Positions 9,926 through 56,533 of a stretch of 64,000 nucleotides of DNA are shown piece after piece. This stretch comes from Haematomicrobium sanguinis DSM 21259. GTDB lineage: Bacteria > Actinomycetota > Actinomycetes > Actinomycetales > Micrococcaceae. How positions within the stretch are numbered: the stretch's first letter is position 1; each line of letters starts with the position of its first letter. Location: assembly GCF_000688395.1 (NCBI RefSeq), contig NZ_JIAG01000006.1, positions 1 to 64,000 on the forward strand, read 5' to 3'. The notes under the pieces are model-generated. The model did not search any database and was not told the DNA's origin. It saw only the letters and a program-made list of their open reading frames with translations. A program made the position numbers and the translations under genes.

Positions 9926-9981
9926 GTGAGACAGGCGCATGGTCGCCATTAACCCGCGGCGAACTTTCACAGCAGAGAAGA

Positions 9982-10037
9982 ACGACGGCGATGCGCGCCC
10001 AGGTGCCTTAAGGCACCGGGGTGGGTATCGCCGTCGT
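9982..10037. repeat. Nested palindrome with ACGACGGCGAT arms
   Basis: Outer arms ACGACGGCGAT (9982-9992) and ATCGCCGTCGT (10027-10037) are exact complements. Inside lies a perfect 16-base palindrome, GGTGCCTTAAGGCACC (10002-10017), with CCCA/TGGG pairs between. Probably a strong hairpin between gltA and the ligase gene. Together with A1 it fills most of the 320-base gap; no gene is visible there. Confidence 0.75.
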
Positions 10038-10170
10038 ACATCTTGTGGTGACCGCCGATTAAGGTCACGGGCCGGCAACCTTTGCCTATAACCCGCTAGG
10101 TAACCTCCCCAAACCCGAGGTCGCCGCGATACACTCCAATCACCAATTCCCGGTGTCAAGGAGGATCGCT

Positions 10171-13160: not shown

Positions 13161-13222
13161 TTGAGGGGCGTTTCGACATTTTAGGGCGGTATAGAACCCT
13201 AAAATGTCGAAACGCCCCTCAA
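13161..13222 (-). terminator. 26-bp-stem hairpin after galE
   Basis: Arms 13161-13186 and 13197-13222 are exact reverse complements around a 10-base loop (CGGTATAGAA). Read in the galE direction the stem is followed by TTTT, so it can act as an intrinsic terminator between galE and the NUDIX-NYN gene. The stem is far longer than usual for a terminator. Confidence 0.75.
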
Positions 13223-30326: not shown

Positions 30327-31283
30327 ATGTCACAACCTATGGGACCTCGAACACCGATGGATTTGGCGCGCGCTCTTCCCGAGGGCGACGTGGTCGGCCA
30401 GTACCGGAATTACTTGGACGCGCAGAAGGCCGTGGATTATCTGGCGGACCAGCAGTTCCCGGTGCAAAGCGTCAGCATTGTCGGAAATGACTTGCACACC
30501 GTGGAGCGGGTGACCGCCCGGCTGAGCTACCCGCGCGTGGCTCTCTCCGGTGCTACGCAAGGTCTCATGCTGGGCTTCTTTGTGGGTCTCGTCTTTGCGA
30601 TCTTTGGCCCGCAGCCCAACTATTTTTTGCTCCTGCCCACGATGGCCATCGGTGCGGCCGTGTTCATGGTCATTTCGGTGATCCAGTATTCGCTGACGCG
30701 CGGTAAACGCGACTTCGCTTCGGTGAATGCGATCGTGGCGCGCAGCTATGACGTCATTGTGGAGCGCGAGGTCGCCGGTCAGGCTCGGCAGCTTTTGAGC
30801 CAATTGCCGATGAACCCCGGTGCTGCGGCCGTTCAGCCCTTCGGCGGTTCTGGGCACACTAGCGCTCGTCAGGATACTTCGGTGCAGCCGCCGGCGCAGT
30901 GGCCGGCTTCGTGGCAGCAGGGCCAGACGAGCCAGCAGGGCCAGACGAGCCAGCAGGGCCAGCAGGGCGGCGCGCCCGAGGGGGCGTCCGGGCAGCCTCA
31001 GTCTGGCCAGGATACGCAGGCGCAGGGCACGCAGATTCAGGGCACGCAGGCGCAGGGCCCGAATCCACCGGGAGCCACGCAGGGCGGCGCGCTCGCCGGC
31101 GCGCCCGATAACCACACCTCGGGGAATGCCAACGGCACGGATCAAGCGGCTGCCGCGGAACAAGCCCAGAGGCCGAAACCGCCCTCGCAGCGTTTCCCGG
31201 ATCTTCCCGATGGCCGCCCGATGTTTGGGGTGCGCGTGGATCCGAAAGATCAGCCTAGCGACGGCGAAAACGCCGAGAAATAG
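30327..31283 (+). CDS. General-stress-like membrane protein with low-complexity tail
   Basis: 318 residues. The N-terminal half (about 1-165) starts with VVGQYRNYLDAQKAVDYLAD, as in general stress protein 17M-type proteins, and holds two membrane spans (about 75-120). The tail is rich in Gln, Gly, Ala and Pro, built on tandem repeats (QQGQTS units, then TQAQG/TQIQG units), and ends in a short charged segment. The ATG at 30327 has GAGAAT six bases upstream; earlier frames are antisense of the MgtE-N gene. Role unknown; stress is inferred from the domain. Confidence 0.75.
   Translation: MSQPMGPRTPMDLARALPEGDVVGQYRNYLDAQKAVDYLADQQFPVQSVSIVGNDLHTVERVTARLSYPRVALSGATQGLMLGFFVGLVFAIFGPQPNYFLLLPTMAIGAAVFMVISVIQYSLTRGKRDFASVNAIVARSYDVIVEREVAGQARQLLSQLPMNPGAAAVQPFGGSGHTSARQDTSVQPPAQWPASWQQGQTSQQGQTSQQGQQGGAPEGASGQPQSGQDTQAQGTQIQGTQAQGPNPPGATQGGALAGAPDNHTSGNANGTDQAAAAEQAQRPKPPSQRFPDLPDGRPMFGVRVDPKDQPSDGENAEK
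30915..30962 (+). repeat. 18-bp coding repeat, about 2.7 copies
   Basis: CAGCAGGGCCAGACGAGC at 30915-30932 and 30933-30950, then its first 12 bases again to 30962. It encodes QQGQTS units in the tail of the stress-like protein. In-frame copy-number change is possible. Confidence 0.9.
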
Positions 31284-31325
31284 AAAACTTCCGTGTGAGC
31301 AATCTGTTGCTCACACGGAAGTTTT
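31284..31325. terminator. Intrinsic terminator between convergent genes
   Basis: AAAACTTCCGTGTGAGCAA (31284-31302) and TTGCTCACACGGAAGTTTT (31307-31325) pair perfectly around TCTG and are followed by another T. The A/T tails on both arms make it a terminator in both directions. Confidence 0.9.
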
Positions 31326-31385
31326 TAACTCAGCGCCGTTTTGGCGGCTCTGCGAGGCGCGACTCACCCGGCCGCGCGCCGGACG

Positions 31386-42672: not shown

Positions 42673-43697
<1,025 letters not shown>

Positions 43698-43706
43698 TCA
43701 GAAACG

Positions 43707-43931
43707 TTAACGAACTGCGAATCCCACCGGGCGAGACTCGCTGGCACCGATTTCGACGTAGCCCAAAACCGATCCGGGGACGATAATAGTGCGACCCTTG
43801 GTGTCTTTGACCACCAAGTCCGTCTTATCGGCGATGGACTTGGACACCTGGGCGGCAAGGTCTTCGGCCGATTGGTCCGTTTCCACCACGATTTCTCGGG
43901 AGACGTTTTGCACACCAATTTTAATTTCCAC
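43707..43931 (-). CDS. DUF3107 small protein
   Basis: A 74-residue protein: MEIKIGVQNVSREIVVETDQ at the start, LVVKDTKGRTIIVPGSVLGY and ASESRPVGFAVR at the end. It matches the actinobacterial DUF3107 family, of unknown function. GTG start, with AAAGGG upstream. It lies 45 bases downstream of the TetR-type gene, as in other actinobacteria, and the two may be co-transcribed. Confidence 0.9.
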   Translation of the reverse strand: MEIKIGVQNVSREIVVETDQSAEDLAAQVSKSIADKTDLVVKDTKGRTIIVPGSVLGYVEIGASESRPVGFAVR

Positions 43932-44722: not shown

Positions 44723-45895
44723 ATGCAGAATCAGGTCAACAACGGCGGGAAACTCGAACCGCTTGTCCAACCTACTGATGCGCTGAGCGACTCACAGCTG
44801 CAACGCTATTCGCGGCACTTGGTCATCCCCGGGTTTGGTGAAGAGGCGCAACGCAGGCTCGCCAATGCGCGCGTGCTGGTGATTGGCGCGGGCGGACTAG
44901 GGTCCCCGGTTCTCATGTATCTGGCAGCGGCAGGGGTCGGAACAATTGGAATCGTTGATGACGACACCGTGGACGTGTCCAATTTGCAGCGCCAAATCAT
45001 CCACGGCCAAGGCGACATCGGAACACTCAAGTCCTCATCCGCGGCACGTTCGATCGCGGAGATCAACCCGGACGTCACCGTGATCGAACACCGCGAACTG
45101 CTTGATAACTCCAACGCCGTCGAGCTCTTTTCCGGATACGACATCATCCTTGATGGCACCGACAACTTTGCCACTCGCTATCTGGTTGCCGACGCCGCGA
45201 CCCTTGCCGACAAACCATACGTGTGGGGATCCATTTTGCGCTTCGAGGGCCAGGTGAGCCTCTTTTGGGACTCCCACGGCCCCAGCTACCGCGATCTCTT
45301 TCCCGAACCGCCGCTCCCCGGCACCGTGCCTAGTTGCGCCGACGGGGGAGTGCTCGGCGTACTCTGCGGGATAGTTGGTAGCGTCATGGCGACGGAAGCT
45401 ATCAAGGCCATCACCGGCGTCGGCAAGACGGCACTGGGCACATTGATGGTGATCGACGCTCTCAACCTGAAATGGCGCACCCTTCAGATCGAGAAGGACC
45501 CTGAACGCGCTCCTGTCTCTCAATTGGGAAACTATGAGGCGTTCTGCGGAATCGACACCACCACAATGCTCCCCGAGGTCAGTGTCGAAGAATTGGCCGA
45601 ACTCCGGCATCGCGGTGAGCCCGCCATTATCGATGTGCGGGAGCAGAGCGAATGGGACATTGTGCACCTCGATGATGCGACTCTCATACCCCGCGGCCAG
45701 ATCATGAGCGGTGAGCGAGACCCTGGCGCACTCGTCCCGGCTGGCGTGGAAGAAGTCTACGTCTACTGCAAGGGCGGAACGCGGTCCTCGGAGGTTGTGC
45801 GGTATTTGCGCAATCGCGGCGTCAACGCGATCAACGTGCGCGGCGGCGTGATCGACTGGGTTGAAAAGATCGAACCGCACAAGCGCCGCTACTAA
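44723..45895 (+). CDS. moeZ: MoeZ-type adenylyltransferase/sulfurtransferase
   Basis: 390 residues in two domains. The first (1-265) is a ThiF/MoeB/E1-like adenylyltransferase: YSRHLVIPGFGEEAQRRL, the ATP-loop VIGAGGLGSPVLMYLAAAG, and DGTDNFATRYLVADA. The second (about 285-385) is a rhodanese with the active Cys in VYCKGGTRSSE. It adenylates and then sulfurates C-terminal Gly-Gly carriers, so it can serve ThiS at 42669 and the ThiS/MoaD-like protein at 33099. No metal-binding Cys pairs typical of MoeB are seen; this is common in MoeZ. Confidence 0.9.
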   Translation: MQNQVNNGGKLEPLVQPTDALSDSQLQRYSRHLVIPGFGEEAQRRLANARVLVIGAGGLGSPVLMYLAAAGVGTIGIVDDDTVDVSNLQRQIIHGQGDIGTLKSSSAARSIAEINPDVTVIEHRELLDNSNAVELFSGYDIILDGTDNFATRYLVADAATLADKPYVWGSILRFEGQVSLFWDSHGPSYRDLFPEPPLPGTVPSCADGGVLGVLCGIVGSVMATEAIKAITGVGKTALGTLMVIDALNLKWRTLQIEKDPERAPVSQLGNYEAFCGIDTTTMLPEVSVEELAELRHRGEPAIIDVREQSEWDIVHLDDATLIPRGQIMSGERDPGALVPAGVEEVYVYCKGGTRSSEVVRYLRNRGVNAINVRGGVIDWVEKIEPHKRRY

Positions 45896-45899
45896 TTCC

Positions 45900-45963
45900 C
45901 ATCTATGTAGCGCGACACGCCGAGGAAACACGTGTTTCCTCGGCGTGTCGCGCTACATAGATG
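45900..45963. repeat. Perfect 64-bp palindrome without a loop
   Basis: Bases 45900-45931 are the exact reverse complement of 45932-45963, meeting at CACGTG. It lies between the stops of convergent moeZ and hemA and could form a hairpin in either transcript or a cruciform in DNA. It shares CTATGTAGC arms with the element at 56469 and GCGACACGCCG with copies A1 and A2. Confidence 0.95.
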
Positions 45964-45971
45964 AGGGGAGG

Positions 45972-47333
45972 CTAGGCGGAATGGCGGGTCTCGGTCTCGA
46001 CGTCGGCACCGGCGCCAGCACCGGCATCGACGGGGCAGCTCGCTTGCGACGCATGGGCACCGGTATCGCCGCGCTCGCCGACCTCGAGTCCAAACAGCGA
46101 CTCAAGCGCATCGACATACTCTTGACCGCGCCCCTCGGCGGCAAGCTCGCGGGCCCGCACCGTCGGAATGTGCAAGAACTGGCGCATCATCCGGCGCAGC
46201 GCGAACTCGACCTCTTCGGCCGCCGCGGTGCACCCGTGTTGCGCACGCACCTTTGCCATCTCGGCGTCCAACACCTGCATTGTGTGCGAACGCAAAGCCA
46301 CAATCGCCGAGTCGATTTCTCGGGCGGCATTGCGCTCGGCGAACTCCTCGACCGCCGAATCCACAATGTCCCGTGCCTGCTCCACCACGGCCGCTTGCTC
46401 CAGCGGCGCCGCCATCCGCACCGACTCCAAGGTCAGCATGTCCACCCCGGGAAGCTGCCCGACACCGGGTTCAAAGTCGTGTGTCAGTGCCAAATCGATC
46501 ACGGTCAACTGCCGTGCCTCGCGTCCGGACCGTGAGCGTCCGGTGGCAAGCGAGGACGCCTGCACCTGAAAATCCCCGCCGGAGCAACCGATCAGCACGT
46601 CGGCGCTAGAAATCGCCGCATCCAACTCATCGGAGGGAACCGCGGCAACCCCGCGCTTGGCCGCAAACTCCGCGGCCCGCCCGGAACTGGAGAACACGCC
46701 AATATTGGCGGCACCGCGCTCGCGCAGCAGTGCCACCGTGGCACCGGCATACGCCCCGGTCCCGATAATCACCACGCGCCGATCCGCCCACAACGGCACC
46801 TCGGCCAGATCATCGGCCAAATCCAACGCCACCGACACAATGGAGCGGCCACGCTCGCCCAAACTGGTCTGCGCCCCGACCTCTTTCGCGGTCTTGGATG
46901 CGGACTGGAACAGCTTAGACAAGGGCTTGCTCGTCAATTGAGCCGCCTGAGCCTCGCTGTGCGCGCGGCGCACCTGCCCGGCGATCTCCCGTTCGCCCAC
47001 GACCGCGGACTCCAAGCCGGCGCTGACCGCGAAAAGGTGATGAACGGCGTCGTTCTTGGCAAAAACCTGAAACGCGCTCTCCAGGCGAGCCGCGGGAATG
47101 CCGGTGGACTCCGCCAGCCCGGCAAGGGCAATACGGCGGGTGCGTTCAACATCGGACTCTTCGGCGACCTCAATATAGAGTTCCAGCCGGTTACAGGTGG
47201 AAAGCGGAATGACGCCGGAAACCCAGGAGTGTTTAGACAGCGTGGAAGCGACCTCGGAGAAGGACGTGCTCAGCCGAGCGATCGTCTCCAGGTCTACTTC
47301 GTGATGCGATGCAACGAGTGAAATGAGAACCAC
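45972..47333 (-). CDS. hemA: Glutamyl-tRNA reductase
   Basis: 453 residues. It reduces glutamyl-tRNA to glutamate-1-semialdehyde, the first committed step of tetrapyrrole synthesis. The active Cys47 is in PLSTCNRLELY; ESAVVGEREIAGQVRRAH and the NADPH loop VIIGTGAYAGATVALL follow, and the C-terminal dimer part ends in an Ala/Gly/Glu-rich tail. GTG start with TAGCAT nine bases upstream. It is divergent from hemE across 171 bases that hold an operator-like palindrome. Confidence 0.94.
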   Translation of the reverse strand: MVLISLVASHHEVDLETIARLSTSFSEVASTLSKHSWVSGVIPLSTCNRLELYIEVAEESDVERTRRIALAGLAESTGIPAARLESAFQVFAKNDAVHHLFAVSAGLESAVVGEREIAGQVRRAHSEAQAAQLTSKPLSKLFQSASKTAKEVGAQTSLGERGRSIVSVALDLADDLAEVPLWADRRVVIIGTGAYAGATVALLRERGAANIGVFSSSGRAAEFAAKRGVAAVPSDELDAAISSADVLIGCSGGDFQVQASSLATGRSRSGREARQLTVIDLALTHDFEPGVGQLPGVDMLTLESVRMAAPLEQAAVVEQARDIVDSAVEEFAERNAAREIDSAIVALRSHTMQVLDAEMAKVRAQHGCTAAAEEVEFALRRMMRQFLHIPTVRARELAAEGRGQEYVDALESLFGLEVGERGDTGAHASQASCPVDAGAGAGADVETETRHSA

Positions 47334-56291: not shown

Positions 56292-56304
56292 TCGCCCCAC
56301 ACCC

Positions 56305-56383
56305 CTAATCGACTGTGCAGAACACGCACGCGACACGCCGTTAAAGTGTGCATTTTCTGCACAGTCGATTTCGAGTGTGCGCT
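56305..56383. repeat. Repeat copy A2 with 16-bp inverted arms
   Basis: AATCGACTGTGCAGAA (56307-56322) and TTCTGCACAGTCGATT (56355-56370) pair perfectly around 32 bases. It is nearly identical to copy A1 at 9849-9925, arms, loop and flank included. It starts soon after the hemL stop. Confidence 0.85.
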
Positions 56384-56409: not shown

Positions 56410-56463
56410 GTACGACGGCGCGTGGTCACCTTTCGTACGAAAGGTGACCACGCGCCGTCGTAC
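56410..56463. repeat. Perfect 54-bp palindrome without a loop
   Basis: 56410-56436 and 56437-56463 are exact reverse complements meeting at TTCGTACGAA. Both ends carry the motif GTACGACGGCG. No T run follows. Confidence 0.95.
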
Positions 56464-56468
56464 CTCAT

Positions 56469-56524
56469 CTATGTAGCAGTTAATGCCCATCCAGAGAAAA
56501 ACATGGGCATTAACTGCTACATAG
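56469..56524. repeat. 22-bp-stem hairpin with 12-base loop
   Basis: 56469-56490 and 56503-56524 pair perfectly around CCAGAGAAAAAC. The outer ends are CTATGTAGC and GCTACATAG, as in the 64-bp palindrome at 45900; the inner part differs. It lies just before the stop of the convergent metQ and may be its terminator. Confidence 0.9.
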
Positions 56525-56533
56525 TCGAGGGGG

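What the first reader, a model, noticed from the sequence alone, without database searches (positions are those of the whole stretch)
45900..45963. 64-bp perfect palindrome with no loop between moeZ and hemA
32 bases mirror exactly without a spacer. Intrinsic terminators have short loops and U runs; this has neither. Long perfect palindromes are normally lost by replication errors, so keeping one suggests selection or recent origin. It lies between two convergent stops.
Basis: seen in the sequence. Interest (0 to 1): 0.6.

Follow-up and report, generated by a model that had tools for sequence, protein, structure and literature searches.

The report
Repeated gene-end hairpin, not lone palindrome
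The 64-base mirror sequence is real, but it is one of at least 69 copies of a long hairpin repeat that this bacterium keeps mostly right behind its genes' stop codons, most likely to mark or protect the ends of their messages.

Summary
The palindrome is real: 45900-45963, 64 bp, no spacer; 20 shuffled windows reach at most 24 bp. It is no lone curiosity: it is one copy of a dispersed ~70-bp hairpin family with at least 69 places in the genome, 67 intact. In subfamily A the stem closes on a variable 6-nt centre; here, and in two other intact copies, that centre (CACGTG or CGCGCG) is self-complementary, so the loop seems absent. Copies sit directly behind stop codons: 60 of 95 facing gene 3' ends lie within -20..+8 nt, against 1 of 38 facing 5' ends; 33 of 64 intact copies with two called neighbours lie between convergent genes. 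At 17 gene ends the stop TAG lies inside the stem. None of 138 flanks has a U-tract. Stems of the B-like copies keep pairing through compensating changes. No RAYT-type transposase gene was found. All four ends found of an IS110-family IS adjoin the same bond of this stem. Best reading: a REP-like, RAYT-less, unusually long 3'-end element, a shared bidirectional RNA 3'-end hairpin. New variant of a known kind; function inferred, not shown.

The parts
45897..45966 (.). Copy of the dispersed hairpin family (subfamily A), 70 nt
   Evidence: Covariance model R1, 90.7 bits on + and 89.7 on -; this copy is one of the 24 from which R1 was built
45900..45963 (.). Perfect 64-bp palindrome
45929..45934 (.). 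CACGTG: the variable central hexamer of subfamily A, self-complementary in this copy
   Evidence: alignment of 32 subfamily-A copies; list of centres; position
45908..45910 (+). TAG inside the stem; in other copies this triplet is the stop codon of a neighbouring gene; not used by moeZ here
   Evidence: 17 gene ends elsewhere
45953..45955 (-). Mirror TAG on the - strand, not used by hemA here
45913..45914 (.). Bond (mirror 45949/45950) that corresponds to the IS110 insertion point in other copies; this copy is uninterrupted
   Evidence: inferred
44723..45895 (+). moeZ-like gene (ThiF + rhodanese); its stop TAA ends 1 nt before the 70-nt element
45972..47333 (-). hemA; its stop TAG begins 5 nt after the 70-nt element
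56463..56530 (.). Second copy in the window, subfamily B (apical stem CAGTTAATGCCCAT)

Best explanation
The palindrome is one copy of a repetitive extragenic hairpin family. Each copy is a symmetric ~70-bp element, mostly placed directly behind a gene's stop codon and often shared by two convergent genes. Transcribed from either side it gives nearly the same long RNA hairpin at the 3' end of the message. That hairpin most likely works as a bidirectional 3'-end element: it stalls or ends transcription without a U-tract (perhaps with the help of factors) and/or blocks 3'-5' exonucleases, and so keeps two converging messages from running into each other. Shown by computation: family, location, pairing, compensating changes in the B-like copies, lack of a U-tract. 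Inferred: that it is transcribed, that it terminates or stabilises, and how copies spread. The perfect symmetry of this copy comes from a self-complementary central hexamer.
For: At least 69 places in the own genome (150 of 1909 candidates were scored). 60 of 95 gene 3' ends facing a copy lie within -20..+8 nt, against 1 of 38 gene 5' ends; 52 of 69 copies have such a close 3' end (which leaves out the IS transposase next to one interrupted copy; searches had 61 of 96). 33 of 64 intact copies with two called neighbours are between convergent genes, against 12 of 60 adjacent pairs in the window, Fisher p = 3.5e-4. No copy lies wholly inside a called gene, though one gene call overlaps 52 nt of a copy (C13:2151). 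In 35 B-like and variant copies 16 of 31 pairs have changes on both sides, 72 such cells against 32.6 shuffled, 0 of 500 shuffles as high. Centres vary while stems are kept. In relatives, 8 of 16 hairpins of like layout that I read have a facing gene 3' end within -20..+8 nt.
Against: No RNA data. No U-tract in any of 138 flanks. In the 32 A copies the number of doubly changed pairs is not above shuffles (8 against 6.6, 121 of 500), because the stem hardly varies; pairing could also be kept by template-switch repair of palindromes. Stems are not all long: the longest unbroken run is 9-35 bp and at least 22 bp in 49 of 67 intact copies. At the moeZ-hemA junction itself my hairpin scan found a long hairpin in only 4 of 22 relatives with convergent moeZ-hemA, of other sequence, so this junction does not demand it. 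Six copies lie between divergent genes, and 35 of 95 facing 3' ends are outside -20..+8 nt.
Confidence: 0.6

Rival explanations
1. A selfish mobile repeat (REP/MITE-like) that settles behind genes because insertion there is harmless; any effect on RNA is incidental.
For: High copy number and conserved sequence between copies; subfamilies that share the basal arm and differ in the apical stem; stops supplied by the element at 17 gene ends would fit insertions into gene ends.
Against: No Y1 transposase gene (PF01797) found in the genome; compensating changes keep pairing in B-like copies; precise adjacency to stop codons. Target-site duplications were not tested.
Confidence: 0.22
2. A DNA-level element: a cruciform or protein-binding site (gyrase, nucleoid protein) that relieves supercoiling between convergent genes.
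For: High symmetry; convergent bias.
Against: Most copies have an unpaired centre, and G-U pairs occur among the variable pairs, which suits RNA better than DNA; 31 of 64 intact copies with two called neighbours are not between convergent genes. Not tested directly.
Confidence: 0.1
3. The palindrome was perfected without selection by template-switch replication (quasipalindrome correction).
For: Among the 12 copies with the strict form GAGGAAA-6-TTTCCTC, 4 centres are self-complementary against 0.61 expected from their composition.
Against: Two hexamers occur twice each, so shared descent could explain it; 8 of 12 centres are not symmetric; it does not explain the position behind stop codons.
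Confidence: 0.06
4. Assembly artefact (inverted-end error).
For: None found; raw reads were not available.
Against: Intact genes on both sides; 67 intact copies on 18 contigs; two further zero-loop copies with other flanks.
Confidence: 0.01

Closest known systems
GTAG-tagged REP elements (Di Nocera et al. 2013, PMC3733652; abstract and passages seen)
   Same: Dispersed palindromes with a conserved GTAG; mostly behind coding regions, between convergent and co-directional genes; termini often supply the stop codon TAG; several organisms hold more than one type.
   Different: GTAG is paired inside the stem on both strands rather than an unpaired tag at one end; ~70 bp instead of 20-40 bp; no RAYT gene found here; the word 'actinobacteria' does not occur in that main text.
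IS110/IS621 insertion into REPs by bridge RNA (PMC11208160, passages; PMC1525189, abstract and outline)
   Same: An IS110-family IS sits in the hairpin repeat; its upstream non-coding end carries a 9-nt stretch equal to the target, flush with the cut.
   Different: Only about two IS copies; right guide and core not identified; that the region makes a bridge RNA was not shown.
Bidirectional Rho-independent terminators; uptake-signal terminators of Neisseria and Pasteurellaceae (PMC1852404, passages)
   Same: A hairpin at gene ends, shared between convergent genes; a repeated sequence forms the stem.
   Different: No U/A tails; this family has no scattered single half-sites: of 46 matches of its 14-mer only one lies outside the 69 places, and that one is the half left beside an IS end.

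Membership tests
GTAG REP / RAYT system | Dispersed extragenic palindrome in many copies | tested here: met
   at least 69 places, none wholly inside a called gene
GTAG REP / RAYT system | Unpaired GTAG at one end of the stem | tested here: not met
   GTAG is paired with the other arm in all 67 aligned copies, with one G-U among these pairs
GTAG REP / RAYT system | 20-40 bp length | tested here: not met
   68-70 nt in the 67 intact copies; both ends of the range are those of the model
GTAG REP / RAYT system | RAYT (Y1 HuH transposase) in the genome | tested here: not met
   PF01797: 0 matches at E <= 0.001; 5 of 14 control genomes ring. A transposase lost from this genome or missing from the 27-contig assembly is not excluded.
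Rho-independent terminator | U-tract after the stem | tested here: not met
   0 of 138 flanks with 5 or more T in 8; 0 sites by consensus scan of 45700-46200
Rho-independent terminator | Stem-loop shortly behind the stop codon | tested here: met
   60 of 95 facing 3' ends within -20..+8 nt
Rho-independent terminator | RNA 3' ends at the hairpin | not testable with these tools
   no transcript data
Described Rfam RNA family | Match above gathering score | tested here: not met
   0 matches in the window

The most novel reading that the evidence does not exclude
This clade carries a RAYT-independent class of long, symmetric 'stop-and-end' cassettes: a hairpin that brings stop codons on both strands plus a U-tract-independent transcript end for two convergent genes, that spreads between gene ends with modular apical stems (one of them found in another genus, L050), and that serves as landing site for an RNA-guided IS110 element.
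Probability: 0.2. Interest if true: 0.6.

Novelty: new variant of a known kind. Interest (0 to 1): 0.42.

Why it matters
If the hairpins end transcripts, this genome offers at least 69 natural tests of termination by a long stem without a U-tract, which I take from my own knowledge to be an unsettled question in high-GC actinobacteria. It also shows a REP-like repeat without a detectable RAYT gene, and a possible natural target-guide pair for an IS110 bridge RNA.

Tried and rejected
Rfam search of the window: nothing at gathering scores. RAYT search: nothing. Scan of the named genomes for the exact basal arms: 6 contigs, by title five Acidobacteria-type and one Saccharibacterium; I did not read them. 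Viral contigs: one contig with a lone arm, no second arm in the 180 nt shown. Plasmids similar to the junction: none.

I first took a stop codon at one fixed stem position in relatives for a strict rule. An alignment of 32 arms shows two registers (TGA in 10 arms in one; TAG, TGA or TAA in 17 arms in the other; 27 of 32 together), stops at other columns too, and the model used for the search itself favours GTAG. I keep it as a tendency only.

The IS110 guide match is 9 nt long; 111 of 2000 mononucleotide shuffles reach this anywhere in the 32-nt target, so length alone is weak; it is its flush position at the insertion bond that makes it suggestive. The right guide was not found by eye. The folded region was not compared with a known bridge RNA.

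On rechecking I corrected: the neighbour of one interrupted copy was the IS transposase, so the counts 34 of 65 and 61 of 96 became 33 of 64 and 60 of 95; my first wording '25-30-bp stem, 6-8-nt loop in nearly all copies' was too neat; and the RNA tetraloop is ACGU.

Full report
Observation. The stretch 45900-45963 is as described: 32-nt arms, fully complementary, no spacer, between the convergent stops of a moeZ-like gene (45895) and hemA (45972). Twenty shuffles of the window give at most 24 bp. There is no T-run on either side.

It is a repeat. The 14-mer at 45953-45966 (CTACATAGATGAGG) matches 46 times in the own genome at up to one mismatch, and 0 times for the reversed control. An alignment of 24 of these places gave covariance model R1. 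It finds 138 matches, that is 69 places on both strands, at E <= 0.001; only 150 of 1909 first-look candidates were scored, so 69 is a lower bound. 67 places are intact, on 18 contigs; 2 are interrupted by an IS. 32 intact copies form subfamily A (CGCGACACGCCGAGGAAA above the shared base); the other 35 are mostly subfamily B (CAGTTAATGCCCATGTT), with hybrids and three copies of a third kind. All share the base C-T-R-TGTAGC with few exceptions.

How long the stems are. With G-U allowed, 24-35 of about 34-35 positions pair in each intact copy; the longest unbroken run is 9-35 bp, at least 22 bp in 49 of 67. So long perfect stems are common, not universal.

Why this copy has no loop. Most A copies have a variable 6-nt centre. 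In the window copy it reads CACGTG, which is self-complementary. Three intact copies are zero-loop palindromes (68, 64 and 64 bp). Of the 12 copies with the strict form GAGGAAA-6-TTTCCTC, 4 centres are self-complementary (one of these copies is IS-interrupted) against 0.61 expected from their composition; two hexamers occur twice each, so shared descent may explain the excess.

Where the copies sit. Genes were called with a codon-usage script trained on the window, so these numbers depend on that caller. Of 64 intact copies with a called neighbour on both sides, 33 are convergent, 25 co-directional and 6 divergent; 3 more intact copies have one neighbour only. Background: 12 of 60 adjacent pairs in the window are convergent, two of them holding copies themselves; Fisher p = 3.5e-4, or 1.2e-4 with those two left out. 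Of 95 gene 3' ends that face a copy, 60 lie within -20..+8 nt; of 38 gene 5' ends, 1 does. At 17 gene ends the stop is the TAG inside the stem. Among stops of close genes TGA is rare: TAA 29, TAG 28, TGA 4, against 22, 19 and 20 in the window (the 61 still include the IS transposase).

Pairing is kept. In the 35 copies of alignment A3, 16 of 31 pairs have changes on both sides, 72 cells against 32.6 in shuffles, 0 of 500 as high; sliding the partner lowers every measure. In the 32 A copies the stem hardly varies: paired cells 90.5% against 89.0% (2 of 500 shuffles), doubly changed pairs 8 against 6.6 (121 of 500), so these say little. Related copies inflate such counts.

Not a canonical terminator. 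Of 138 flanks none has five or more T in the first eight bases, 2 have four or more; 587 of 1104 bases there are G.

Relatives. The genus holds one genome. In 197 genomes of the family, 8 including the own one have a match at E <= 1e-6 under stricter filters. The 7 others, searched again, give 33 matches at E <= 0.001, 19 places, of which I read 16. They have the same layout with genome-specific sequences; 8 of 16 have a facing gene 3' end within -20..+8 nt, and in three of one genome (L055, L154, L158) a called gene's stop lies inside the stem. L050 shares 15 nt on both arms with subfamily B. Much of these matches is structure, so kinship by sequence is clear only for L050. A pattern for a B-like stem occurs in 3 of 197 genomes, the own one included. 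hemA was found in 61 of 61 genomes; of the 29 relatives whose loci I had, 23 show moeZ, 22 of them convergent with hemA and one partial and distant (L120); my scan found a long hairpin between the genes in 4 of these 22, of different sequence.

IS110. Two copies (C14:86061, C21:10597) break off at the same bond into the same sequence. Matches to the two parts of this IS lie on four contigs: one end on C14 and C21, the other on C13 and C17; each part runs to the end of its contig, and all four adjoin halves of this hairpin. That these are two IS copies is inferred. The protein (325 aa, cut by a contig end) matches DEDD_Tnp_IS110 and Transposase_20. The IS is about 1.4 kb judged from overlapping coordinates. 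Its upstream non-coding end holds ATGTAGCGC, equal to the target and flush with the insertion bond. REPs as IS110 targets are known.

Literature. REPs behind genes, between convergent genes and supplying TAG stops are described (PMC3733652, abstract and passages); TnpA-REP recognition of GTAG (PMC8266576, passages). A survey of inverted repeats in 118,019 genomes reports conserved arms and variable spacers, more so near terminators (PMC13155455, passages). A 2025 REP survey lists Arthrobacter livingstonensis, with palindromes of at most 32 nt by default (PMC12306157, passages). A survey of stem-loop families includes Corynebacterium diphtheriae (PMC2267715, passages). PMC8355165 was seen in passages only. 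My searches listed no paper on this family; they cover open-licence papers only.

Verdict. A REP-like, long, symmetric 3'-end hairpin family without a detected RAYT gene. Likely role: bidirectional RNA 3'-end element. The single copy that was flagged is ordinary within the family.

Noticed in passing
window 3243, 10029, 22413, 32764, 33161, 36474, 39095, 49443, 51223, 52665, 56410, 56453, 60440: The 11-mer GTACGACGGCG occurs 13 times in the window against 0.05 expected (order-3 Markov) and 279 times in the genome against 0 for the pattern read backwards. 10 of 13 lie in called genes, 5 sense and 5 antisense. It resembles a DNA-uptake-like or other genome-wide signature word; it is also raised in some genomes of the family (G104: 249 against 17) and at control level in others (G180: 0 against 3).
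   Followed up: partly
window 56410-56463 and 9976-10043: A second hairpin family, inverted pairs of ACGACGGCG (the 56410 one a perfect 54-bp palindrome that abuts a copy of the first family); 32 such pairs in the genome; 32 of 69 copies of the first family have such a half-site within 150 nt, some sharing one. A hairpin with this word stands at the hemA junction in relative L122.
   Followed up: partly
L093 2554-3153, L094 2554-2911, L012 1-1268, L151 1508-2775: Parts of an IS110-family insertion sequence; all four ends found adjoin the same bond of the hairpin stem.
   Followed up: partly
window 13161-13222, 31264-31345, around 43684-43707, 56298-56379: Other long hairpins at or between gene ends; 31264-31345 has A/T ends like a classical bidirectional terminator.
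   Followed up: no
L044 1688-1755, L091 2501-2568, L092 2501-2568: A rarer third apical variant (CGCGAAATACGCG-like) with mismatches in the upper stem.
   Followed up: no
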